Positions 13,406 to 62,258 of a DNA stretch of 64,000 bases are shown piece by piece. The notes below the pieces were generated by a model. That model made no database searches. It was not told where the DNA came from and saw only the letters and a list, made by a program, of their open reading frames with translations. Within the stretch, counting starts at the first letter, position 1; each line of letters starts with the position of its first letter. The stretch covers positions 25,960,501 through 26,024,500 of the forward strand of contig NC_092580.1 in NCBI RefSeq assembly GCF_037975245.1, read 5' to 3'. The stretch is from Apostichopus japonicus (lineage: Eukaryota; Echinodermata; Holothuroidea; Aspidochirotida; Stichopodidae). The translations under genes and the position numbers were made by a program.

Positions 13406-16400
13406 TTAAACTGCACCGCCTACAGGGGGTTCCATTCTTGTTGTGACCTCAATGACCCTGGGCTTTGGACTCATGGTAGCTGTTCTATCGCCAACATCTA
13501 CTACTCCTATGATCCAGGCAGGGTTACCTTCTTGAGCATCCATAGCACGACAGAATGCAGCTGCTTGCTCTCTAGGAAATGCTATAAGTAGACCTCCTGC
13601 AAAGAAAGAAATGCAATGTACTGTTTACTTGTATAGCAAATACTAGAAAACTTGATTTGCATGACAGTGCTACAAAACATGACTTGTATGACAATGTTAG
13701 AAATATGACTAGTACTAGAAAACATGGCTTGTGTGACAATGCAAGAAAACATGACTTGTATTTTGTTAGAAACAAGACTAATACTAGAAAAAATGGCTTG
13801 TGTGACAATGCAAGAAAACATGACTTGTGTAACAATGTTAGAAACAAGACTAATACTAGAAAACATGACTTGTATGACAATGTTAGAAATATGACTAGTA
13901 CTAGAAAACATGGCTTGTGTGACAATGCTAGAAAACATGACTTGTATGACAATGTTAGAAACATGACTAATACTAGAAGACATGGCTTGTGTGACAATGC
14001 TAGAAAACATGACTTGTGTAACAATGTTAGAAACAAGACTAATACTAGAAAACATGACTTGTATGACAATGTTAGAAATATGACTAGTACTAGAAAACAT
14101 GGCTTGTGTGACAATTCTAGAAAACATGACTTGTATGACAATGTTAGAAACATGACTAATACTAGAAGACATGGCTTGTGTGACAATGCTAGAAAACATG
14201 ACTTGTGTAACAATGTTAGAAACAAGACTAATACTAGAAAACATGGCTTATGTGACAATGCTAGAAAAGATGACTTGTATGACAAACCTACTTTAGTAAA
14301 CATGGCTGGTGAGGCGATGCTCAAAACATGGCTTGTATGACATTGCTAGAAAGGATGGCTATATGACAATACTAAAATACAGTACTTGCAGTGTGACAAT
14401 ACCAGAAAACATGGCTTGTAGGGCAGTGCTCAAAAACATGGCTGATATGACAATGCTTGAAAACATGGTTTGTATGGCAATACTAGTAAAACATGACTTG
14501 TAAGACAATGCTAGAAAACATGGCTTGTATGTCAATCTTGAAAACATGGCTTTTATGGCAATGCTACAAAATATGACTTGTAAGGCAATGCTTGAACAAG
14601 TGGCCTGGATAGCATTGCTACAAAAGCATGGAAAAATTTCAAACCAAGCAGAGTCTTACCTGACGTTTCAGCAGAGTATCCTTGTAGAAGCTGGAAAAGA
14701 TTTCCACTGGATTTGGCAACAGTACTCATCTTAGCAATCACAGGAAGGTTATGAATCACAAACTTGACTTCATTGGGTTGATACTTAGCAAGTGCTTGAG
14801 CATGTCCAAGGATTCCATACCCTGTTACATCAGTAGCACCTCTAGCGTTGAAATGGCGCATCAGAGTTGCAGCTGTCCGGACAAATTATGATAGTTGGAT
14901 GATTAATTTAACAAAATGGAAAGGTGGAGAATTTTCCATGAGTGCTACCGTAGCATTTCTAAACTGTGCATCCTTCAAGCACAAATGATGTAAGAAGGGT
15001 AAGGTACAAATTTTAATTTGTGTACTTCACGTAGTGTGTTTTTTCTTTTTTTCTAGAGCTGTGATCAACTTTCTATCTTTGCCATTCACTCCAAACTCAA
15101 GTCTCTGATCTGCTTCCAAGTTACTTTAGTAAAACATAAATGGCTAGAGACTCCAAGTAAGACAATATGTATGCAACTTTGTGATATTTTCAGTTATAGA
15201 TGCATTATTATCTTCAGAGTATAAACATCAATTTACATTAAAGTTTGGGAGAGAAACATTCACTACACAGCTCACTACTAACGACTTTAGTCAACCAAAC
15301 AGTTTAATAATCAACTTTTCATCTGTCACACACAATTTACAGAACAACAATGGTCAGAACCTCGACAAGACAAAAACAGCAACATTGTCCTTAACAAGCC
15401 CGACAGTAACCTAATTTTGCTCACCAACAACAAAACTTAACTTCTCTCCTATTTCTGATTACCTTTCAGATTTAGCCTTGCCATGTTAAACATGGCCTCC
15501 TTGTAGGCTACATCAATGTCTGTCTCCTTGAGCTGGTTGCCACTCATCAGCCTCCTGTACCTTTCATTGTTGGATTCTTTCCACTGCTTCGCATTAACGG
15601 CAACCTGTGTCCCCAAAGGTTTTGTCAGAACAAGTACATTTCCAGCCTCAGCATGGGGTCTAAATAAGAAGAGAAAATGCCAAAACTCCTGAAACATTTC
15701 CTGCCTTCTTAATTTCATTAGAGTGGAATGAGCAACATGCAAACCTTATTGAGAGTCACTCAGTCTCTCAGGCTATACATCAAAGACATATCAACCCACC
15801 TGTTCTGGGGATCAATGGGTCATTTAAGACACTTAAAATCCTTTAAAAAAGGGCCGTGAACTAACCAAATGCACAAAACGCAACGTTAAAATTTGTCAAA
15901 CATGTTGATGTAAGCTTTCTCTCATGCATACAGTAAGAATGCTAGTTATAATACTGGAATAGCATGCTTCAAGTACAGAACTGCTATTATAAGTTATATA
16001 TCATATGTTTTCTGCTTCACTTTTGGCTTAACAATAACCGACAAAATACCATCCAGCGAAAATTAATGCACTCTAATAGCTGATCCAAATTGACGAATGC
16101 AAAAACTGGTCAAAGCAAAAAGCAATTTGAAGAAGCCAACAGGATTTTCGTATGAAGAGCTGAAACTAGTGTGTTCTGACCTACAAGGGTCCCTTCTACT
16201 AAGAATCCATTTTGGAAGGTAATTTCCAATTCAGCTTACATGATGATATCCCCAGGCAGGACCGCCGAGGTGGCTACACCTCCAATGATGCACCATGGGT
16301 TGAGGACTGTTTGACCACCAGTTATATCTGTACCAGCTTCTCTTGCAGCATCCTGATTGACAAAGATAAATAGCAGTTTTTAAAAATACAGTAACCACAA

Positions 16401-25608: not shown

Positions 25609-28600
25609 ATGAGTTCCGAACCACAGCAAACAAGCCCAGGTCAAACAAGTCAGCAACGAGGATTTCTGGTAAGAACAATAAATAATTATGTGTTGCCAAA
25701 GTTAGTCCAAGCCTAGTCGTAAATGTAGGGTGGCCTACTCCATATAAAGGCCCCATTGACCTACACACTAGTTGTCAAAGTAAGGTGGCTCTTACTCATT
25801 GTTGAATTTCTCAGTAGCTAAACTCAACCCCTCACAGGATAGCTGACACTTAGGTCATTCAATTTGCAGTATAATGCCCACATAGAGTTTTAGCTATGAG
25901 TCGACTGACTCACTGAGACTGAGCCAATTGTTTTCAACACTTCTAAACAATCCAGTTACTCACCAGAAAACAAGTTTTGTGTGCTGCTCATGGGTTAAAG
26001 GCATTGAAGACTCGCCCCAAACAGCTTGAGGCCATCTGAAAATGTTAACTTTCTGTTGCTTGCAAGTTACGTTTTTTTCTTGTCGCTACAAAATGCAGAC
26101 ATTAATGAAATGTGATACCTAGTTATCTTTTATCTAGACCTGAGATGTCCATCGCTGCTATGTTCACTGTGTTGTGGGTATTGATAGTAGCTGCATGTAT
26201 TGACTGCACACTAGTGTCTAATTACCGATGGTAGCAAGCTTTTTGTGTATTTTCTGGGATGGATGGTTGAAGCTAACACCTCATTTGAAACTAGGTCAGA
26301 TTACTGGCATGAGAAGTTTCTTTTGCGCGCGAGTCTTCAATGCCTTTAAGGCCTTATGTGGTCAAAAATTGCTTCAATTTCACCAAGTTTTGCACCACAT
26401 GTACTTAAAAAACCAGATTCTGTATGCTAACATACCATTTGTTGGCTCATTAAGTATTGCACTGAGGCTTATTTACCCGATCGTCAGTGCAATAGGCAAT
26501 ATATACTGGTGCTTATTTACTGGACTGTTGGTTAATTAAATAAGGGTTGCTTATTTACCTAGTGGTAGGTTAAATATTTACATGAGATCTAACAAAAATG
26601 GCACACCCTTCCTGCTTTTCACCCCTCAAAACCTCAAAAAAAGTAATTTGTCAAACCTTGTATACATGTAAACTCTATGAAAATTCTACAAGTGTAAAGC
26701 TAATTATATATAGACTAAACATGCATCAGACTGCACCATTTCACATCTAAGTTTGTTTTCCGTTTGGGAGTACCCCATGACCCCTACACCAGTGTTTGCT
26801 TAATGAACTCAGGGTCATATCCCCACCTAAGCGGAGCAGATTGTTTCCAGAAAATCTGGGAGGTATAGTAATATTGATGTTTATCGCCTTATATTGAGAT
26901 TCGCCCTGTACGTTTAGAAACAAGTGTGCAATTTTGAGGTTCTCTCAGTCTTTAGGTGGTTTTATTTGTTTCAAGAATAATAATGGTCAACTGCCAAACT
27001 TTATTCAGCAAGTATTTTGTACAATAATATTATTTCTATAAGAAACTTGCTCAAATCTGGTCTCAGTGAAATTTCTTGTAACTGTGTCCAAACTGTATTT
27101 TTTTGCCAACAAAGTCTGTAATCCATGGCATGACTGACTCCTTATAAAAAAACATTGATTTAATTTATAAAACGTTGTGTGTTTCAGCATTTTAAATATC
27201 GCTATATTTTGTGGTTGAGTATATTATCAATGATATCACAATGTGGTATTAATAAAGTGACTTTCAATCCAAGATTCTATTTCTTTCAGGGTGACCTACC
27301 ATTTCGAGTTGAAGTCTTGCTAGAACCAAAAGGTTTCATCCGTCTTCTAGCATTTTAAATATCGCTATATTTTGTGGTTGAGTTTATTATCAATGATATC
27401 ACAATGTGGTTTTAATAAAGTGACTTTCAATCCAAGATTCTTTCTTTCAGGGTGACCTACCATTTCGAGTTGAAGTCTTGCTAGAACCAAAAGGTTTCAT
27501 CCGTCTTCTAGCATTTTAAATATCGCTATATTTTGTGGTTGAGTATATTATCAATGATATCACAATGTGGTATTAATAAAGTGACTTTCAATCCAAGATT
27601 CTTTCTTTCAGGGTGACCTACAATTTCGAGTTGAAGTCTTGCTAGAACCAAAAGGTTTCATCCGTCTTCTAGCATTTTAAATATCGCTATATTTTGTGGT
27701 TGAGTTTATTATCAATGATATCACAATGTGGTATTAATAAAGTGACTTTCAATCCAAGATTCTATTTCTTTCAGGGTGACCTACCATTTCGAGTTGAAGT
27801 CTTGCTGGAACCAAAAGGTTTCATCTGTCTTCTAGCATTTTAAATATCGCTATATTTTGTGGTTGAGTATATTATCAATGATATCACAATGTGGTATTAA
27901 TAAAGTGACTTTCAATCCAAGATTCTTTCTTTCAGGGTGACCTACCATTTCAAGTTGAAGTCTTGCTAGAACCAAAAGGTTTCATCTGTCTTCTAGCATT
28001 TTAAATATCGCTATATTTTGTGGTTGAGTATATTATCAATGATATTACAATGTGGTTTTAATAAAGTGACTTTCAATCCAAGATTCTTTCTTTCAGGGTG
28101 ACCTACCATTTCGAGTTGAAGTCTTGCTAGAACCAAAAGGTTTCATCCGTCTTCTAGCATTTTAAATATCGCTATATTTTGTGGTTGAGTATATTATCAA
28201 TGATATCACAATGTGGTATTAATAAAGTGACTTTCAATCCAAGATTCTTTCTTTCAGGGTGACCTACCATTTCAAGTTGAAGTCTTGCTAGAACCAAAAG
28301 GTTTCATCTGTCTTCTAGCATTTTAAATATCGCTATATTTTGTGGTTGAGTTTATTATCAATGATATCACAATGTGGTTTTAATAAAGTGACTTTCAATC
28401 CAAGATTCTATTTCTTTCAGGGTGACCTACCATTTCGAGTTGAAGTCTTGCTAGAACCAAAAGGTTTCATCCGTCTTCTAGCATTTTAAATATCGCTATA
28501 TTTTGTGGTTGAGTATATTATCAATGATATCACAATGTGGTATTAATAAAGTGACTTTCAATCCAAGATTCTTTCTTTCAGGGTGACCTACCATTTCGAG

Positions 28601-31600
28601 TTGAAGTCTTGCTAGAACCAAAAGGTTTCATCCGTCTTCTAGCATTTTAAATATCGCTATATTTTGTGGTTGAGTATATTATCAATGATATCACAATGTG
28701 GTATTAATAAAGTGACTTTCAATCCAAGATTCTTTCTTTCAGGGTGACCTACCATTTCGAGTTGAAGTCTTGCTAGAACCAAAAGGTTTCATCCGTCTTC
28801 TAGCATTTTAAATATCGCTATATTTTGTGGTTGAGTTTATTATCAATGATATCACAATGTGGTATTAATAAAGTGACTTTCAATCCAAGATTCTTTCTTT
28901 CAGGGTGACCTACCATTTCGAGTTGAAGTCTTGCTAGAACCAAAAGGTTTCATCCGTCTTCTAGCATTTTAAATATCGCTATATTTTGTGGTTGAGTATA
29001 TTATCAATGATATCACAATGTGGTATTAATAAAGTGACTTTCAATCCAAGATTCTTTCTTTCAGGGTGACCTACCATTTCGAGTTGAAGTCTTGCTAGAA
29101 CCAAAAGGTTTCATCCGTCTTCTAGCATTTTAAATATCGCTATATTTTGTGGTTGAGTTTATTATCAATGATATCACAATGTGGTATTAATAAAGTGACT
29201 TTCAATCCAAGATTCTTTCTTTCAGGGTGACCTACCATTTCGAGTTGAAGTCTTGCTGGAACCAAAAGGTTTCATCCGTCTTCTAGCATTTTAAATATCG
29301 CTATATTTTGTGGTTGAGTATATTATCAATGATATCACAATGTGGTATTAATAAAGTGACTTTCAATCCAAGATTTTCTTTCTTTCAGGGTGACCTACCA
29401 TTTCGAGTTGAAGTCTTGCTAGAACCAAAAGGTTTCATCCGTCTTCTAGCATTTTAAATATCGCTATATTTTGTGGTTGAGTATATTATCAATGATATCA
29501 CAATGTGGTATTAATAAAGTGACTTTCAATCCAAGATTTTCTTTCTTTCAGGGTGACCTACCATTTCGAGTTGAAGTCTTGCTAGAACCAAAAGGTTTCA
29601 TCCGTCTTCTAGAATTTGTAAGTGGTTTTGTGTTTCCGCTTTATGAATTAGTTTCAATATATTCCACTTACAAATTTTTTTTTTCCAATTTGATGATCAA
29701 TGATGATAGACGAAATTTACCCAGTACAACATATTGTGTTTAGATAGCTATATTTTGCAACAGTTTTCCCAATGTCTCCAGTCTAACATTGTTCAAGATA
29801 TTGATTAGTTCAAATTTTTTATGATAGCCTAGAATTCTGGTGAATGGGATAAATGGGTAGCAATTGTACAAATTGTCAGACCGTAGCAACAATTAGCTTG
29901 ACAATAGAGGTGCAACCACACATTTTGTTATTGAGGGTTGGTGGGGGGGGGGGTGGGGGTGAGTCATGAAGATGTTATGTCATCCTGGGCAAGGTTGTAA
30001 GAACTGGGTAAATGGAGGGTGCGTTGACCCTAAATGGTGCTATACTGTATATTGCAACTGCTATGGATGTTCTTTACATACTTGTTATATGTTTATGTAA
30101 AGTTCAGTATGAAGTTTTTGAAGTACAGTAGTCAGACTCAGTGGGGTAAGGGGACGGGAACGAGTCCCCCGTAGTATTTTTTTGGGGAGGGAGCCAGAAT
30201 TAGACTATGTTGCACGCCTGCTTGAAATTGACTTGGTAAGTTTCATGTCAAGTGACGAAGCAAAGGTGCAAAAAATTGAAAATTTCCAATGTATTGTTGT
30301 TTTCATGTGATTCATTTGAAAAAAAGTGTTGTCATGGTGACAAAGTTTTGAAAAATAAAAACTACTGTACCGAATGGTTGTTTATTCACTGAGTACTGTT
30401 TATTTGATGATAACTCATACTTTTTGTGTAACACAAACTCATAGTTTATTGTGTTGTTAACTGTGTGCCGTTGCTGTATACTAAACATTTTCTGAGTTTC
30501 ATATTTCATATCCTTCAGGTAAACTAATCTTGTGTGTGTCATTTATATGCATAATGGACCAAGATATCTTTCTTACAGTCACATGTTCAGTAATACCTGC
30601 AACTATTTGAAGCACGGGATACTTCAGATATTATTTTACTTGCATACCGATAACATCCAGTTTGGTTTCCATCCAGTATTAACAGTGAAGTTGTATTGCT
30701 GGTATCACTGACAAGATGATCAATATTCAAGCTTAGTTGGGTCATTAATTAGTGCCATCACTGTTACTTCACAACATACATCTTCTTGTCACTTGGCTAT
30801 TCCAATGAACATTTGGTTGCAGAAAAATATAATGGCTAAATTCTGTTGGATGCAAATTGTACTCTGACTTAATTTATTTAACAAATAAAACTACACAAAT
30901 TTCACTATTGCACAAACATGAACCAGCAAACACACATGAAGAAAGCATTTAACTTATAATATATAAACACCAAAATACCTCTTTAGCCCTAAAACATCGA
31001 GAACATCAAGAAACCACTGGTCCCTATTACAACAGCATTATATTACGTGGCATTACTTTCCAACCATTTCGCAAGCAATCTCAGATATATGTGTAAAGTT
31101 ATGTATCCTGGCTAGACGCAACCAACCCCAGTAGTCCTTTTTCGGTGCGCGCCCAATATATGTATATATATCAATGGACATTGAAAAGGACTTATTAAGT
31201 AACACAAATCACGAGGGTTCAACAAGCCAATCATGCAAGGACCTTGTTCAAACTTTCGAATAATTATGCAGCTGAATCTGAACAATTTGAGGTATGGTCA
31301 AACAAAGTTACACCAAATGTTATGTAACAGACAGCAATACGGAAACACGCAAAATACATTTCACTACACTGTTGTCCTCTTGGTAGAAATAAGCACGAAT
31401 GCAGTGAAGAAGAAGTTAGTGCTCAAATTTTGTGCAGCAGTTTTAAAGGCTCAGAATATTGGTCTCCTATCAGAACTATGGTTCCTGCATAAACAACTGC
31501 TATACAGCTTAGACCTTGGATAGCAATTTGCAGTTTGTGATGAGTTACCAGAAAAAATTATTCACTGGAATGTACTGTAGCTGTTGTGTGGAGCTGCTGA

Positions 31601-34600
31601 TAGTTATAGACATGGAATAAACTTTGCTACACAAGTCACAACACAACTTTATTTCCACAATTTATCCAGTATCAAATATAAGAATTCTTTGCAAAAGTAA
31701 CAAATTGCTATACAAGCGCAAGGCATATATCCCAGTTTCTTGTACAAATGAACCATAACATTTGATAAGAGACAAAGTTTCATAGCCTTCAGAACTGCTA
31801 CTCTAAATTATGCCCTCAGAGATTGAAATACTTAAGAAATTTTGTACCTCATGTTCCATGTGAACGTTCAATTCCTCCAAACTTAACAATCATACTTAAA
31901 CCAGACAAAAATGTCTGAAGTTGATCGCAGGAATCAGAAGGTGTCGTAAGCAGACATGAGATCAAAGTTTAAAAGTGTGACTGCTGTTGCTTTCAAGTAT
32001 GACAAGCTCACTTTGACAACCTCAATGAAATACCATACATAATTTATACCATTGATTTCCCTTTTAAATAACTTCACGCAATAATTTATTGAGGGACAGG
32101 AAAGATGTACTATAGTTAAATGGTTCACAAATTCTGAAAGTTTTGGCAAAAGCAGACTGTGGACATGTGAACGCGCGGTTAGCAATATAGTCAAAACTCG
32201 AACAATCTTATCGGTACTCAAGGTTAACTTAATGGAGGAAATCACAACCTTTTTTTTTACAGCTTCTTAATATTGGATGCAACATAATTAAATGAGGACT
32301 TACACAGCTGATGGTTCATTATAAAAGATATAACGTTGAGATGGTACAGCTTGCATCTGAAATGTTTTAATTTTGTTTATTCTCTCCATCATATGTATGT
32401 CAATGCATTGATAGCACTTGTAATGCAACATCATACTTGTCTCAGACCTGTCAACTCTCCCGGTTTTACCGGGAGACTCCCGGTTTTTACCCGAATCTCC
32501 CGGCCTCCCGGTTTCATATTCTATTCTCCCGGTTTTCTAATGTTTCATCACTTGCGAAATTTCTGAAAATAGCCAAGTTTGTCCTATGCCTATCGCGTAA
32601 TAAGTGTAATCTAAAAATAGATTGATTGTTTACAAACACGTTACGACTGACACAGTGCTGTGCTTGACTCTCAACCAATAGCAGGCTGCTTTGTCAGTTC
32701 TCAGACTTCGCCCAATGTCGTTATTGTACGTTGGCCTTGGTCGAGTCCTGAATAAAGTACAGTAGTACGGCGTGCACTGTGCATATGCCATGGTGCACAA
32801 GTTTAATAAACACAAGTTGTCACCTGTTTGTATATGCGGCGTACCTAATGTAATGTGCAGTTCGCATGTAGGCTACTGTACTTATGTACGACAAAAAACA
32901 GTTAAGTTCTATGCCGGCACACACTTTACCTGCCTCCTCTTCGATGCTAGGTGAACATCACGTCTTAATCTACCATTTAAGAAACGGCTGTTTCAAACAT
33001 CTCACTAATTCTTTCGGCGACTTTAATCCCTATTCATTGAGCACAATAGCATAACCTGCGTATAAACTCGTACAGGGATTATACGAGGTGTCTTCGCAGC
33101 AATTTGTTTGTCAACGATTTTATACGCGATTGTACTTGTCTATACGTCTTTATACGATCCTGTGCGCGTACACATGTCCAGTATACATGAGCGGTACTGT
33201 AGACTATTTATTTAGGAGTATTTGTATAATTTCAGTTGAAAATTACCAACCTCCCTATTTTCCCCTTATTCTCCCGGTTTTTTGGCCCTGAAAAATGTTA
33301 TTCTCCCTATTTTGGGGTCAAACAGGTTGACAGGTCTGTCGTTTGTTCGACCTTCTTTCGTGGTTGGAATTTTGCACTGGTTTCAGTTAGTGCACACATG
33401 TTGAGGTGGCAATTTGTTGCTTTACTCAGTTTAAAATGTAGTTTAAAAGTATAGGAAATAAACAATATTTGCATTAATTCTGTTTTGCCTATCCCACAGG
33501 TGCTGGCAATATGCATGTTTGCAACAACAGCTGGGTATAATAGTATGTTTTCCTTTGATATGACCTGCTCATCTGCGGAAGTTGCACCAACCCGAGCTGA
33601 TAGGGTTACATATAACTTTGGTTATCCATTCAGGTATGATTTCTGTGATCTAGGCGCTATGCCCATTGCAACAAATGGCTAATATGACTGTCAGACAATA
33701 GATTTTGCAAGAAAAATTTTGTGTTGCAAATCATCAAATATTTGTCTTGCTTAATATAAATCTTAAACTCATAAATGTCACAGTATAATATTGAGGGCTG
33801 GGTAATATACACATTTAAACAGTGACATTGCATATAACAATATAAAGCAAACTCTATGCTGAATTGAACCTCTTTTATATCCACTAGATGCTGGGCCATT
33901 AGTTTTCAGAGGAGATGTTGTGTTAAGAGTATTTACTATCATGTATGATTTGCTGTAGATCTGCTGTTCAGACAAGTCATACAAGTGAGCCCTTGCTTGA
34001 ATAGTAAACAATCATTAAACCTGTACGTGCTTGCATAACACTCTTCCATTCAACATTGATCCACCACCAGTGCTCAAATGTGGATTGACTGTGAGCAGCT
34101 TTATGACCAACCAGGAGGAAGACATTAACCTGATCCCCCTTCCCCCCTTTTGGGTTCTCAAGTGTGAACATGGCCTTTTTTCAGCCTATTTGGTCAGGCT
34201 AGATGAAATTTATTGAACTAATGGTTTTAATTTGTTATAAACAAAGCCTGTAAACTCATTCGAGCATCTCCAACCTTGTCAGGACAAAGGATACATTTAA
34301 TGTAAAGCCTGGGTGACAAACATCTGTGCTCGTATAAGCCTAGTCGGATTAGATGAGCTTATACACATACTGAACATTTTGTATTAATGTAACATGACAA
34401 ACTCGGTGTTCATCAGTGACTCACTTCCAAGACAAATGGGTTAGTGGTAAATATGTTGTGTAAATTTTAACTGACACACTCTGTTCGTCAGAGCATCTGG
34501 TTTTAGTCAGGAAGCTCGAGTTATTGTGAGTATCCTGCGCAAACCTCAAGGCTGACAAAGCTTTGACTGATGTGAATCCTTATTCGTAAAAGTGGTAAAA

Positions 34601-37600
34601 AGTTGAGCCAGTAGTTTGTGTTGTGCGAAAGTTATGTTTCAACTTCAACTTATGTTTGTGTTGTGTGAAACTTAGGCTTACAAATTCTTATATTTAAACT
34701 GTACCTACTTAGAATAGTCAGAACAAGTGAGTTAGTGCTGAATTTGTTTGTGTAAACCTAGTTGACCAGTTCTTGCTAGTCTCAACTCTTGATTTATCCC
34801 AAATAATCAGAAGAGGTCAGATAGTAGACCGTGACATGACTTGCAAGAGTATGAACTCTTACCCAGAATTGTCGCGAGAGGTGAATTATTAGGTGGACCT
34901 AAAGTTGGCAATCTTCTGCTAGGCTGACCTCTGTACTTTATATCCCAACAATCAGAAGAAGTGAGCTAATAGTTCAAAATTGTATTTTTGCACGTCAAAG
35001 ATGATCTTAAAAATTGTTAATGTAGTAAGTTACGTGTTTACAATTTTCATCTTTCATTCTATGTCTAGTTTCTCCGATAAAATTCTAACCACCTGCTTCG
35101 ATCCTGTGGCCATCGAAGAAAGTCCTTCTGGTGCTGCTAAATTCTTTGTGGTTGTCGGTGTTTTTGCTATGTTGTACACCATTGCAGCGGTTGTATGGTA
35201 TGTTGTCCTGGAGGCCAAATACATACAATTTGAAATTGTGTCTCTAGTGGTGAGTTTTATGTCCCATTAATGGACCATGTTTTGGCAGGTATTTTTGAGT
35301 CGGTGGGGCGCCACCGATGTAAGAAGGTGAAGTTTGAAGGTGTTTTAGGCATGATTGTGGCACAAACGAATGGTGTGTAGCATGCCATGGGTGGAGGGGG
35401 AGGGGGGATATGGCTACTGACCTGACTGTGCTACTTGAAGAAGGGGGGGATAACCGTAATTCATTTTCACTCATGTATGAGATTGTTAGAATTGATAAAC
35501 CCAAACTACGTTGTTCATTATAGCACTCTAAACCTTTACCTGTTCAAATTGCTACGCAATTATCTTACTCATTTATACAGAACTACACTAAAACAGTGAC
35601 ATTCTCTCTAGTTTATTAACATTTTGCAAGCTTCTGTAGGAGAGCTGCAGGTCTGCTTCTTCAGGGCATGTTCCTCCAAAGGATCACTGCAGGGCTCTCC
35701 CCAGTAGTACAGGCTCTCTGGGAATGTTAGACATGCATCAACTATGTAAGAGCATAGAATATTGTAACCTGAAAATAATCTATGTGTTTGTATGCTTTAG
35801 AGAAGTGGGCTGCTTTATATAATAGCAAATCATTCATTCTTTCTCTTGGTCCTTCACACAGATTATTCTTCATTTACATAGTACTGCAACCCCTTAAAGT
35901 CTTACATACACAACAACAATATACAAACAATAAACACACACTAACTGCTCAAGTCCACAGAACTAGCACCATCAAGCATTGGGTTTCCCTCTGGATATTG
36001 GCGCATTATGAATGTGAATTTACTATTATTATTATGATTATTATAAAGTACACAATACTCATGATTAATTAGAAAATTGCATCACTAAATGGCTTCCTTG
36101 AACCACTAATTAAAATGGAACTTTTTTGACTGCAGTATGTATCGGTATATACATACAAACTGTAAAATGTGTTTTAGCTCTGTTAAGGGTCAATGCATGC
36201 CACATTACAGTCAATCAATCTACACGTCAGAGGCCAATAAAACCATATCAGTAACTGTACAAAGCATCCCTCTCTCTTTCTTTCCTACTTACAGTACAAC
36301 AACATTTAATTGTAGAGAAAATGACTGGCTGTTGAATGAGAGAGCTGCTATTGCTAAAGAGACCTAGTGGGTTATACAATCCATTTGCTGCTTTGTGTGT
36401 GCAAGTTATGAATTATTTCAATCCAAGACATAAAATTTGGTGTCCCACAAAATGAAGATCTTGTTCTTTCATCAGTTTCATCTGGTTGTTTGATTGGACT
36501 TTATATCCAACAGGCTAAGGTTCTTCTTCACCTGATCTTCCAGTTGATAAATGTAGAATTTTACCACAAATTCAGTAAGTTGTTAAAATGAAAAGGAATG
36601 CATTAATAGGGACTGTTTCTGATTTTTTTTTTTTTTTAAATCCTGTCTCCTTTCTCCTGTAGGATTTTGGTGCCACTGTGGTTTTCACCCTGCTCTTCTT
36701 CATCGCATCGTGTGCGTGGGCGGCAGGCGTATCCACCGTCAAGTTTTGGACTACATTGGATAACCTGACAACTGAGAACGGCATCCTGTCAGGCTGTACT
36801 GCTGATAATGTAACTTGCAAGTCAGAGGAGACACCTGGATATGGAGGGCTCAACATCTCAATCGTAAGGCTACCTTTAAATACCATACCATTCACAAGAT
36901 TCTCTCACATGTAGAACTGAAAGATTGATTAGTTTTGCTTGTTTTCTTGCCTATCATGTTCAAATCGACTACAAAGAGGATGTTTAGAATCATGCCCATA
37001 GTAGATTAGCCATACTCGTAACCGGAAATCTAGTATGTTTAATCAAACTCTGTTCAAAATTTGATTGCATTGCATCTGGCCCAACCAGCCCACCCATTCC
37101 CCTACAGAGGCTGTCATGAGGAAGATTTAATTTTGCATCATCTATTTAAATTTTTCTACCCCCTACCGAAGGAGCTTCCTTTACTGTGTCAGAAAATTGT
37201 AAGATTTGTTAATTTAGTCTTTCCTACCATCACAACAGAAAGTGTAATGTGTTTTGATTCTGTACAAAGATATCCCTGATATCTTTGTGTGGAGCAGGGC
37301 TGCTTATTTTGCTGATGTCAGGGATGCATTGGAATGGTGAGTGACAGGTTAGGCCCTCCCTTATGTTGGAAGTGGATTGTAGCGTAGGGCTTGTGGTGTC
37401 GTTATGGTAGTAGATGTTCTTCAAAAGGCTTTGCTTTCCTGTTATAATCTTCTTGTTGATTTATTCCTTAAAACGTGATACATTAGGAATATTGACTTAT
37501 CTGCCAATGTTCGTCCACTTTTTAAAACAAACGTTTGGTACAAATATTCCTTTCCTTACTGTGTGACGATTTGAATATTGTGAAGAAGCGCAAAACATTG

Positions 37601-38550
37601 ACAGCTCCATTGCAATGATGACATTGTTCACTCTGCAAAGATGCATTCCAAAAATGCTATCAAAATTTTTGCTGTGCAAAATGGTACCAAGATTTGGTTT
37701 TGAGTTGACTTATGTGCAGAAACTATCCACCAATTAACCTCAGCTGCTATAATATCCCTCTACACCTCGAGAAATATCCATTCAGTTTTACAACTTAAAC
37801 AGTAACGACTAGCCTAGGCAGGCTAGGATTAAACCACTTGTGAAATATAAAACTGAATTGAGGATGAATTCATTAATGGCATCCAGTGAATAAAAGAGTG
37901 AAATTTCTTTGTATTTTTTCTTCTGGTACCAGCGTTTAAAATGATCTGGTAGCCAGTGTGCCAAGGATGTGTAGTTTGTAGCAATATGTATTTTGAGGAC
38001 AAAATGCAAATAGATTCTTTAATGGATGTCTTCATACAGAGTTAAAGTCTTGATACGTTTATTGGAGGTATGGTTGCACATGAGGAGGGGGCTCTGTGGG
38101 GAGAAAGGTGGTATCCTCCTCATTGGAAATGTGCCATTCCTTAGACCTGTTATTGTTATCTAGCCTATTTTCCAGTTCTGTGCCATAATTTCACACACAG
38201 GCGCCCTTTGGTATTGTAAAAAGGACAGGGGCACTTATTGACCCCCTGTCCTGTTCATCTTACATTACCCTTCCCCCACCAATCCTGGGTTAAAATCCTC
38301 GGAAAGGAAATGCTTATATTTGTCACCAATTAGAATCGGCATTTTGAAAACATTTAGCAGTTACTGAATGGGTGGTCAGTTTTTCCACAAGTATCGGTTT
38401 AAACAAAACGTGTTGCTTCTTCTGCAGCTGTTTGGATTTCTCAATGCCGTGGTTTGGGGAGGCAACGTGTGGTTCGTCTGGAAGGAGACACCGTGGTTCC
38501 GTGCCAGAAGTGAAGCTCAGACTGGTGGTGATCTGACGAACAAGGCCTAA
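25609..38550 (+). CDS. Synaptophysin/synaptoporin-family MARVEL protein (six coding exons)
   Basis: Four-TM vesicle membrane protein of the synaptophysin (physin) family. Coding exons: 25609-25668, 29552-29617, 33500-33633, 35069-35249, 36663-36863, 38428-38550 (stop TAA 38548-38550); all GT-AG, phases consistent, 254 residues. The ATG has A at -3. The family N-terminal motif LLEPKGFIRLLEF precedes TM1 (about 38-56). TM2 is about 112-134, TM3 149-170 (FASCAWAAG-like) and TM4 215-232 (FGFLNAVVWGGNVWFVWKETPWF). Each vesicle-lumen loop has a cysteine pair (C65/C96 and C192/C199), as in synaptophysins; loop 2 has N-glycosylation sequons at N181, N196 and N211. The cytoplasmic tail is only about 20 residues and lacks the Tyr/Gly/Pro repeats of neuronal synaptophysin, as in synaptophysin-like proteins. 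The 5' end of exon 2 is amplified in the intron 1 array (27187-29610). Confidence 0.92.
25999..26345. mobile_element. piggyBac-type MITE in intron 1 of the synaptophysin-family gene
   Basis: 347-bp element with inverted ends AGGCATTGAAGACTCG / CGAGTCTTCAATGCCT, flanked on both sides by TTAA (25995-25998 and 26346-26349). The TTAA target is characteristic of piggyBac elements. There is no coding capacity. A related copy sits at 44850-45221. Confidence 0.85.
27187..29610 (+). repeat. Tandem array of intron 1 end plus truncated exon 2 (15 units of 161-163 bp)
   Basis: Fifteen head-to-tail units begin CATTTTAAATATCGC and end CGTCTTCTAG. Each holds the polypyrimidine tract, the CAG acceptor and most of exon 2 (GGTGACCTACCATTTCGAG...). 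In 14 units the exon copy is cut after CTTCTAG and runs into GCATTTTAA, giving RLLAF then a stop; the 15th unit runs into the real exon end GAATTT with donor GTAAGT. The 3' splice sites look intact in every unit. A few copies have substitutions (CGA to CAA, CGT to TGT, CCA to CAA), and units near-alternate GAGTATATT and GAGTTTATT. Each unit has AATAAA after the stop. The unit junction shares AG with both original breakpoints. Confidence 0.95.
32443..33338. mobile_element. Unclassified inverted-repeat element with CCCGG-rich ends
   Basis: Begins CAGACCTGTCAACTCTCCCG and ends GGTTGACAGGTCTG, a perfect 13-bp inverted repeat (CAGACCTGTCAAC). Inside both ends are repeated CTCCCGGTTTT / CTCCCTATTTT motifs. 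I could not find a convincing target duplication (ACTTGTCT versus TCGTTTGT), so the superfamily is not assigned. It lies in intron 2 of the synaptophysin-family gene and codes for nothing recognisable. Confidence 0.6.
34590..34975. repeat. Degenerate tandem repeat in intron 3 of the synaptophysin-family gene
   Basis: Variants of AATCAGAAGAAGTGAGCTAATAG recur at about 34590, 34712, 34800, 34865 and 34947, with a variable 65-120 bp spacing. The copies are diverged, so the repeat structure is tentative. Confidence 0.3.
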
Positions 38551-49021: not shown

Positions 49022-49108
49022 CCCACAGCCCTTCCCAATTCCCTTTCCCTACTTCCATTTTGCCATATGTGTTAGGAAAAAGGTTTTCTCTACAGGTTTC
49101 AGACCTAA

Positions 49109-49236
49109 GTGAGTTCACACCCAGGTGAGTTCACACCCAGGTGAGTTCACACCCAGGTGAGTTCACACCCAGGAGAGCTCACACCCAGGTGAGTTCACAC
49201 CCAGGTGAATTCACACCCAGGTGAGGTCACACCCAG
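49109..49236. repeat. 16-bp minisatellite, eight units
   Basis: Eight copies of GTGAGTTCACACCCAG in perfect 16-bp register; units 5, 7 and 8 carry one or two changes (GAGAGCTC, GTGAATTC, GTGAGGTC). A partial unit follows. Confidence 0.95.
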
Positions 49237-49246
49237 GTGAGTGAGT

Positions 49247-54874: not shown

Positions 54875-55930
54875 TCAAGGCCATACATGTTTCACTTCCT
54901 GGCAACCTTAGCAGCAATGTTGGGAATGCAAGATATTTGGTGATCTCAGTCATTTCTTACTTTGTTTTGTTCCTTTTATTAACATTAAGATAATTTGAGG
55001 TTTAAAGGTCTACTGACACCTATGAACAACATTGTCCTTATCAATATGTTAGGCATTAGAAATCATGACAATAGCTGCAACTCTCATAAGAAATCCATCA
55101 AAGATTGACCATTTTAAGAGTCTTTTTTTAATTCTAGTTTTATTTATGAATAAACATTACCTAATTATGCACCTTGATGATGTACATTAACGAAGAGACT
55201 GCATAATTTTCTATTATGTGATTCCCTTTGTTTGTAAAACCTTCGTTTCACGGACACTGAGAGCAGGTTTGTGGCCTAAGGCGATTTTTTTAAATATTTA
55301 ATATTGAATAATCCCTAGAAATAAACATTTGTAATCATAAACAAAGTCAAGTGGGTTCTCTCATCTCTGTTCTTCAAACTTGAAGAAGCTGGAAGCCCTC
55401 TACCATAATTCAATAAACATTCATGAAATGTGACACGAAACACAGCTGTTCAAGGCATGTTTTTGCAAAAGGAACAGGATATTAGAAGCACATGAAACCT
55501 TTGGCAAGAATTTACGAGGCACGATTGGCATTAGAGGATAAATTAGAACCATATACATGTACATATGTTTATACGTTATGTGACATCAACCAAAGAACCA
55601 ATTCAAGCAAATCTCTATCAAGCAAAGAGGTTAGTATGTGGTACTTGAGGAATCCTAAGATAAATGGAGGTGCATTTATACCAGAGAGGTGTTATCTCCC
55701 TGAATAATACTGGCAAATATAAAGAGAATAGCCTTAATGATGTAAATGAGATAATTAGAATGGAGATGACAGATCTAATGAAGTATACATGCCAGGATAA
55801 TAACTTGTATTCAACCAAACTATGCTACATAAGACGTACATGGGGATAGCTCCATGATAAGACAGACTGAACACTAGTATACCGTGCACAGATGTTGATT
55901 ATAAACAGCTCAGTGTAGCTGAGCCTTCAG
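54875..55930. other. Intergenic, no gene recognised
   Basis: Non-coding DNA without recognisable elements. Confidence 0.35.
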
Positions 55931-56416
55931 GGGCCCTGGGTCAAAAGGGAGAGCTGGGCCTCAGGTCAGGAGTGAGAGTTGGGACCCTGGGCCAAGAGGG
56001 AGAGCTCTGGGGTCAAGAGGGAGGGCTGGGGCCCGGGCTCAAGAGTGAGAGCTTGAGCTCGGGGACAAGAGTGATATCTTGGCCAAGGGTCAAGAGGGAG
56101 AGCTGGGGCCTGGGTTTTAGAGTAAGATCTGGGGCCCAGGGTAAAGAGGGAGAGCTGGGGCCCAGGGTCAAGAGTGAGAGCTTGGGCTAGGGGACAAGAG
56201 TGAGATTTGGGGCCCAGGGTCAATAGTGAGAGCTTGGGATCGGGGACAAGAGTGAGATCTGGGGCCAGGGGTCAAGAGAGCTGGGGCCAAGGGTCATGAG
56301 TGAGAGCTGGGGCCCAGGGTCAAGAGGGAGAGCTGGGGCCCGGGGTCAAGAGTGAGAGCTTGGGCTCTGGGACAAGAGTGAGAGCTGGGGCCCTGGGTCA
56401 CGAGTGAGAGCTGGGG
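55931..56416. repeat. G/A-rich minisatellite
   Basis: Roughly 28-bp units of the type GGGTCAAGAGTGAGAGCTGG and GGACAAGAGTGAGATCTGGGGCC, repeated about 17 times with substitutions and small length changes. Open frames on both strands come from the repeat period. Confidence 0.9.
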
Positions 56417-61934: not shown

Positions 61935-62258
61935 TCTCTCCCTTAGTTCTCCTCACACACTCCCTCCTCCGCATCCTTCTCCTTCTCCTCACGCACTCCC
62001 TCCTTCTCACCCTTCTCCTCACACTCCCTCCTCCTCATCCTTCTCCTCACACACTCCCTCCTCCTCATCTTTCTCCTCACACACTCCCTCCTCCTCACCC
62101 TCCTCTGCACACACTCCCTTCTCTACACCCTTTCCTCACACACTCCCACCTCCTCTAACACACTCCCCCCTCCTCACCCTTCTCCTCACATTGTCCCTCA
62201 TCACACATTGTCCCTCCTCCACACCCTTCTCCTCTCACACACTGTCTCCTCCTCTCTA
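61935..62258. repeat. CT-rich minisatellite (CTCCTCACACACTCCCTCCTC type)
   Basis: About 320 bp of imperfect tandem units such as CCTTCTCCTCACACACTCCC with variable length. A purine-rich stretch (GGGAGGGAAGG type) follows at 62340-62530 on the same strand. Confidence 0.85.

What the first reader, a model, noticed from the sequence alone, without database searches (positions are those of the whole stretch)
27187..29617. Fifteen-fold amplified splice acceptor and exon 2 in a synaptophysin-family gene
A 161-163 bp unit holding the end of intron 1, the acceptor and all but the last few bases of exon 2 is repeated in tandem. Fourteen decoy exon copies with intact 3' splice sites precede the one copy with a donor. 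The junctions show a 2-bp AG microhomology between TTCAG|CATTTT and CTAG|AATTTG, suggesting an initial tandem duplication that removed the exon's end and then expanded as a satellite. A gene carrying many identical competing acceptors is unusual.
Basis: seen in the sequence. Interest (0 to 1): 0.75.

Follow-up and report, generated by a model that had tools for sequence, protein, structure and literature searches.

The report
Tandem-repeated splice acceptor in synaptophysin-like gene
In what is probably a sea cucumber genome, the start of one small exon of a synaptophysin-like gene, with its splice signal, has been copied fifteen times in a row; the gene still reads intact through the last copy, and similar arrays ('mirages') were described before in amphioxus.

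Summary
Window 27186-29617 is fifteen head-to-tail units of 161 bp (10) or 163 bp (5), 95.7-100% identical, found at one place in the assembly. Each unit carries about 100 bp of intron 1, the 3' splice site (same 20-mer in 15 of 15) and 61 of the 66 bases of exon 2; only the last reaches the donor at 29618. The gene is intact: six exons give a 254-aa synaptophysin-family protein. Any of the 14 upstream acceptors would bring a stop after 42 codons, so the upstream units most likely behave as intron. They show no sign of coding constraint. The kind is known: amphioxus 'mirages', minisatellite-like duplications of intron-exon boundaries; globin BflGb6 has 150-160 bp units of intron end plus exon-2 start, and RT-PCR suggests regular splicing (PMC3087553). 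New here, as far as I could search: the lineage (assembly statistics fit the sea cucumber Apostichopus japonicus), 15 copies rather than 6 and 3, the homogeneity, and a working copy identical to its neighbour. No RNA or raw reads could be examined, so acceptor use and copy-number variation are untested.

The parts
25609..25668 (+). Exon 1, coding part (20 codons from ATG), donor GTAAGA at 25669
   Evidence: Open frame, phase 0; donor in the top 0.8% of window GTs by a recalled weight matrix; start codon inferred
27186..29447 (+). Units 1-14 of the array: intron end, acceptor and 61 of 66 bases of exon 2, without the exon's own end and donor
   Evidence: acceptor core in all copies
29448..29617 (+). 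Unit 15 with the complete exon 2
   Evidence: its first 163 bp are identical to unit 14
29552..29617 (+). Exon 2 as predicted to be used (66 bp, GDLPFRVEVLLEPKGFIRLLEF), donor GTAAGT at 29618
   Evidence: Frame continues into exon 3; similarity to synaptophysin begins at residue 28, inside this exon
33500..33633 (+). Exon 3
   Evidence: Seen by eye in the frame list
35069..35249 (+). Exon 4
   Evidence: MARVEL match here, E 1e-4, just below the family's cut-off
36663..36863 (+). Exon 5
   Evidence: MARVEL match here, E 0.002, below the cut-off
38428..38550 (+). Exon 6 with stop codon TAA

Best explanation
This is a boundary-spanning minisatellite of the 'mirage' kind inside a gene that reads as intact and belongs to the synaptophysin family. 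Inferred history: one tandem duplication, joined at a 2-bp AG overlap, copied the end of intron 1 with its acceptor and the first 61 bases of exon 2 but not the exon's end or donor; unequal exchange or gene conversion then expanded it to 15 copies and kept them alike. Inferred working: exon 2 is defined across the exon by an acceptor paired with a nearby donor. Only copy 15 has the proper donor, 66 bases away, so the transcript joins exon 1 to copy 15 and removes copies 1-14 as part of intron 1. The array is thereby close to neutral for the protein. Shown by sequence: the array, its edges, the single proper donor, the 254-codon frame through copy 15, and the stop after 42 codons for each other choice. 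Not shown: actual splicing, expression, and copy-number change.
For: Array and unit structure. GT-AG introns and a 254-aa product through copy 15 only; copies 1-14 give 42 aa then a stop, 14 of 14. MARVEL E 2.2e-23 and PDB synaptophysin E 1.2e-36. No GTRAG inside the array; GTAAGT at its edge. Copies vary in exonic columns as freely as in intronic ones (4 of 59 versus 4 of 104, Fisher p 0.46), and 3 of the 4 exonic differences change an amino acid. Precedent with the same anatomy, where RT-PCR suggests regular splicing: amphioxus BflGb6 (PMC3087553, passages); amphioxus Adh and TnC duplicate splice sites without aberrant mRNA (statement in PMC3902484, one passage).
Against: No RNA evidence. 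By a recalled donor matrix, AGG|GTGACC just inside every acceptor (6.3) and AAA|GTGACT (4.6) score above the real donor TTT|GTAAGT (4.1). By U1 pairing energy over all 17 GT contexts of the array, one ties with the real donor (GTG|GTTGAG, -6.5, with a bulge, in 10 units) and AGG|GTGACC is close (-6.0); TGA|GTATAT (-5.1) equals this gene's exon-5 donor. So cassette use of an upstream copy is not excluded. Copies 13 and 14 would give exons of 392 and 229 bases, the latter not too long for exon definition. That copy 15 carries none of the exonic differences says little, since 10 of 15 copies carry none. With 15 related units the Fisher test is weak.
Confidence: 0.8

Rival explanations
1. Poison-acceptor array: a fraction of transcripts uses an upstream acceptor, gains the stop after codon 42 and is destroyed, so the copy number sets the gene's output.
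For: All 15 acceptor cores are intact; each upstream choice gives the same early stop; a 229-base exon from copy 14 is of ordinary length; weak donors exist in the units.
Against: In amphioxus arrays of the same anatomy RT-PCR suggests regular splicing. Intact acceptors are expected anyway at 1.4% mean divergence, so they are no sign of selection (inference).
Confidence: 0.12
2. Assembly artefact: the true number of units is much smaller or larger.
For: The draft-genome version of the BflGb6 mirage appeared aberrantly assembled (supplement legend in PMC3087553). No raw reads could be seen here.
Against: Units form 11 distinct variant combinations and neighbours are no more alike than in shuffled order. 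Contig statistics fit a HiFi assembly with 14.7-kb mean reads, which would span 2.4 kb. No N in the window.
Confidence: 0.06
3. Alternative or mutually exclusive exon array, in which several copies are coding exons.
For: Five of 15 copies differ from copy 15 in exonic bases, with P/Q, R/Q and R/C changes.
Against: No copy but the last has the exon end or a GTRAG donor; reading on from copies 1-14 meets a stop at codon 43.
Confidence: 0.02

Closest known systems
Amphioxus 'mirages', globin gene BflGb6 (PMC3087553; passages read)
   Same: [quoted passage not shown] duplicates beside one authentic section that forms part of the transcript; acceptor signals in copies.
   Different: BflGb6 has 6 and 3 units in two haplotypes at 81-100% identity, not all repeats keep splice signals (said of mirages in general), and boundary units are excluded from homogenisation; here 15 units at 95.7-100%, 15 of 15 acceptors kept, and the working unit is identical to its neighbour. 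Gene and, by inference, phylum differ.
Amphioxus Adh3, TnC and PGBD5 boundary duplications (told in PMC3087553 and PMC3902484, passages; the Adh3 paper itself not held)
   Same: Tandem repeats overlapping splice sites; no aberrant mRNA reported for Adh and TnC, and none supposed for PGBD5.
   Different: Units of 10-72 bp (Adh3) or 60 and 108 bp (PGBD5, imperfect); 5' splice sites also involved.
Human IFI6 (6-16) minisatellite with several splice donors (Turri 1995: title seen in two reference lists and one sentence on it in PMC4526556; the paper not held)
   Same: Minisatellite at an exon edge that multiplies one splice signal.
   Different: Donors, not acceptors; repeat units there are used as splice sites in mRNA; unit is short (recalled).
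Human internal tandem repeats at exon-intron boundaries (PMC2812944; passages, part of the abstract among them)
   Same: Minisatellites at boundaries can change intron edges; 27 intron modifications reported after manual inspection.
   Different: On average 30-bp units repeated 4 times, in segmental duplications, with transcript variants.

Membership tests
Mirage (minisatellite-like duplication of an intron-exon boundary) | Tandem repeat unit spans an intron-exon boundary | tested here: met
   104 alignment columns up to the acceptor and 59 exon columns per unit; frame and splice sites
Mirage (minisatellite-like duplication of an intron-exon boundary) | Authentic boundary kept, gene readable | tested here: met
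   Exon 2 complete at 29552-29617, 254-aa frame
Mirage (minisatellite-like duplication of an intron-exon boundary) | Regular splicing not disturbed (RT-PCR in amphioxus) | not testable with these tools
   No RNA reads available
Mirage (minisatellite-like duplication of an intron-exon boundary) | Length instability between haplotypes or cells | not testable with these tools
   One assembly only, one locus found
Mirage (minisatellite-like duplication of an intron-exon boundary) | Boundary units excluded from homogenisation (reported for BflGb6; not a definition) | tested here: inconclusive
   Units 14 and 15 are identical over 163 bp, but share a pyrimidine-tract form found in none of units 1-13
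Synaptophysin family | MARVEL domain and similarity to synaptophysin over most of the length | tested here: met
   MARVEL 83.2 bits, cut-off 32.8; PDB synaptophysin E 1.2e-36 over residues 28-244 of 254
Synaptophysin family | Orthology to vertebrate SYP rather than SYPL, or a vesicle function | not tested
   No tree or expression data
Mutually exclusive exon array | Each copy has acceptor and donor and keeps an open frame | tested here: not met
   No GTRAG in the array; stop at codon 43 after each of copies 1-14; weak non-GTRAG donors do exist

The most novel reading that the evidence does not exclude
The array is a copy-number rheostat: the 14 upstream acceptors divert a share of transcripts of a synaptophysin-family gene into an early stop, so expansion and contraction of the array, between animals or between cells, tunes the gene's output; at the same time conversion between the free copies and the working exon feeds coding changes into the protein.
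Probability: 0.07. Interest if true: 0.75.

Novelty: new member of a known kind. Interest (0 to 1): 0.42.

Why it matters
Under the name 'mirage', such arrays are described, in the papers I could search, in amphioxus. A large, homogeneous example in what is probably an echinoderm would show that they are not a cephalochordate oddity. It also offers a natural test of how the splicing machinery picks one acceptor among 15 near-identical ones, and of whether concerted evolution can rewrite a working exon from its silent copies.

Tried and rejected
Transposable or dispersed satellite origin: a genome search with the unit finds only this array (the tool skips very common words), and blastn of unit, intron part and exon 2 against the array-masked window and 20 sampled pieces gives only short matches, best E 0.067.

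Recursive splicing at CAGG|GTGACC: considered because a donor-like GT lies one base inside each acceptor. Each step would leave an extra G and shift the frame, so I do not favour it; it was not tested.

Higher-order repeat: TRF also lists a 485-bp period, but similarity at lags 1 to 4 does not clearly exceed shuffled order (19-54% of 5000 shuffles reach it).

Genome base rate: 20 pieces of 10 kb (200 kb, one from each of contigs C1-C20) hold 79 non-overlapping arrays covering 18.9 kb; 0 of 79 have period 100 or more with 5 or more copies. Long arrays of shorter units do occur (2.7 kb of 65-bp and 1.5 kb of 76-bp units), and some arrays are cut by the piece ends. So tandem repeats are common here and this shape is not; the sample is small and was not chosen for genes.

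Survey for other exon arrays: 135 protein-kinase matches (131 of 1182 candidates scored) show, by eye, no run of same-range matches at short spacing. This search could not see 20-codon pieces: the MARVEL search missed exon 2 as well, so it is weak evidence.

Paralogues: the whole protein gives 20 matches, 20 of 20 in this gene. The C-terminal 173 aa give three matches in this gene and one elsewhere at E 9. MARVEL gives three weak matches elsewhere, E 0.03 to 0.3. So there was no clear array-free paralogue to compare.

Literature: ten searches ran; two searches returned nothing. The two listed papers that use the word 'mirage' in this sense (PMC3087553, PMC3902484) both treat amphioxus genes. 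I opened passages of 8 papers in all; (92 papers, 12 listed) none was opened, and (17 papers, 12 listed) five were seen, two of them through earlier calls; the C. elegans minisatellite and splicing paper listed there (PMC4039745) was seen as a listing only. Earthworm metallothionein wMT-2 has two exon-4 duplications, one inverted, absent from the transcript (PMC12783039, passages), a loose parallel. The amphioxus huntingtin passages (PMC2206037) gave nothing on boundary repeats.

U1 energies first failed on a format error, were redone for 11 of the 17 GT contexts, and then for all 17.

Full report
Observation. The window has a tandem array at 27186-29617. Cut at its junctions it consists of 15 units, ten of 161 bp and five of 163 bp, the last one running on into AGAATTT and the donor GTAAGT. 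The 2-bp length difference lies in the pyrimidine tract (alignment columns 93-94). Ten of 163 alignment columns vary; mean pairwise difference is 1.4% without gaps, and pairwise identity with gaps counted is 95.7% or more. Eleven sequences are distinct; units 14 and 15, units 9, 10 and 12, and units 5 and 7 are identical. A search of the whole assembly (671,581,487 bases, 35 contigs) with one unit returns 15 matches, all here.

Gene. Exons at 25609-25668, 29552-29617, 33500-33633, 35069-35249, 36663-36863 and 38428-38550, all five introns GT-AG, give 765 bases without a premature stop, a 254-aa protein. It has a MARVEL domain (E 2.2e-23) and matches PDB synaptophysin over residues 28-244 (E 1.2e-36). 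Exon 3 was recognised by eye in the frame list and checked. The start codon and exon 1 are inferred. My recollection is that exon 2 of vertebrate synaptophysin also has 66 bases; no call tests this.

Anatomy of the unit. A unit opens with AG (the end of the exon stretch before it), then holds 100 or 102 bases of intron end, the acceptor (TTTCTTTCAGGGTGACCTAC in 15 of 15) and 59 further exon bases; with the next AG that makes 61 of the 66 bases of exon 2. Only copy 15 is followed by the exon's end and the donor. The array holds no GTRAG. If any of acceptors 1-14 is used with the real donor, exon 2 becomes 229 to 2328 bases long and the frame stops after 42 codons in 14 of 14 cases.

Constraint. 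4 of 59 exonic and 4 of 104 upstream columns (the opening AG and two gap columns included in the 104) have substitutions, Fisher p 0.46; mean pairwise difference is 1.6% in exonic and 1.2% in upstream columns. Three of the four exonic differences alter a residue. Copy 15 has none of them, but neither have nine other copies. So the copies show no sign of coding constraint; the sample is small.

Splicing, inferred. The simplest reading is exon definition: copy 15 alone has the proper donor at normal distance. Against an easy answer: weak donor-like GTs lie in every unit. AGG|GTGACC beats the real donor in a recalled weight matrix (6.3 against 4.1). In U1 pairing energy over all 17 GT contexts of the array, GTG|GTTGAG ties with the real donor through a bulge (-6.5) and AGG|GTGACC follows (-6.0). 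Use of other copies at some level is not excluded.

Source. Contig lengths C1-C20 with the total give N50 29,643,483 at rank 10 (C21-C23 would have to exceed 29.6 Mb to change this, and all that is left outside C1-C20 is 66.8 Mb). The published HiFi assembly of Apostichopus japonicus has 671,643,915 bases in 34 scaffolds, N50 29,647,521 at rank 10, N90 20,397,903 at rank 20, 23 chromosomes of 18.21 to 46.02 Mb, and mean HiFi reads of 14.7 kb (PMC10344927, passages). Here the longest contig seen is 46,036,110 and one is 20,392,820, 18th of the 20 seen. The figures are close but not equal. I infer that the window is from this species, in a version of this assembly; it is not proven, and no sequence comparison with a named sea cucumber was possible.

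Comparison. [quoted passage not shown] RT-PCR suggests regular splicing, and somatic instability is reported at Adh3 (PMC3087553, passages). PGBD5, Adh and TnC are further amphioxus cases (PMC3902484, one passage). The present array meets the structural definition. It differs in lineage, copy number and homogeneity. In BflGb6 the boundary units are excluded from homogenisation; here the working unit is identical to its neighbour, although these two share a pyrimidine-tract form seen in none of units 1-13, so a recent duplication at the edge explains it as well as conversion does. My searches for 'mirage' found no case outside amphioxus; most subscription papers are not in that library, so this is not proof of absence.

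Verdict.

Noticed in passing
window 49098-49242: A 16-bp minisatellite (TTCACACCCAGGTGAG, 9.1 copies) whose units carry a donor-like CAGGTGA, 7 exact sites; whether it lies at an exon edge is unknown.
   Followed up: partly
window 13627-14592: A roughly 1-kb minisatellite of about 27-bp units with nested longer periods (72, 117, 189 bp among others).
   Followed up: no
window 55930-56416 and 61947-62256: Two further imperfect minisatellites (26-bp and about 30-bp units).
   Followed up: no
window 29552-29553 and the same place in every unit: A donor-like GT starts one base inside each acceptor (CAGG|GTGACC), resembling an off-by-one recursive splice site.
   Followed up: partly
window 27351 and the same place in each unit: The unit junction TTCATCCGTCTTCTAG|CAT is itself acceptor-like (score 6.1, top 6% of window AGs by a recalled matrix), a second possible acceptor per unit.
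   Followed up: no
L024:4664-7379 (G000 C20, about 10.00 Mb): A 41.6-copy array of 65-bp units, 2.7 kb; tandem repeats cover about 9% of the 200 kb sampled.
   Followed up: no
G000:C7:15942140 and G000:C7:16070849: Two pairs of kinase exon matches with equal or nearly equal scores 129 kb apart, perhaps a recent gene duplication.
   Followed up: no
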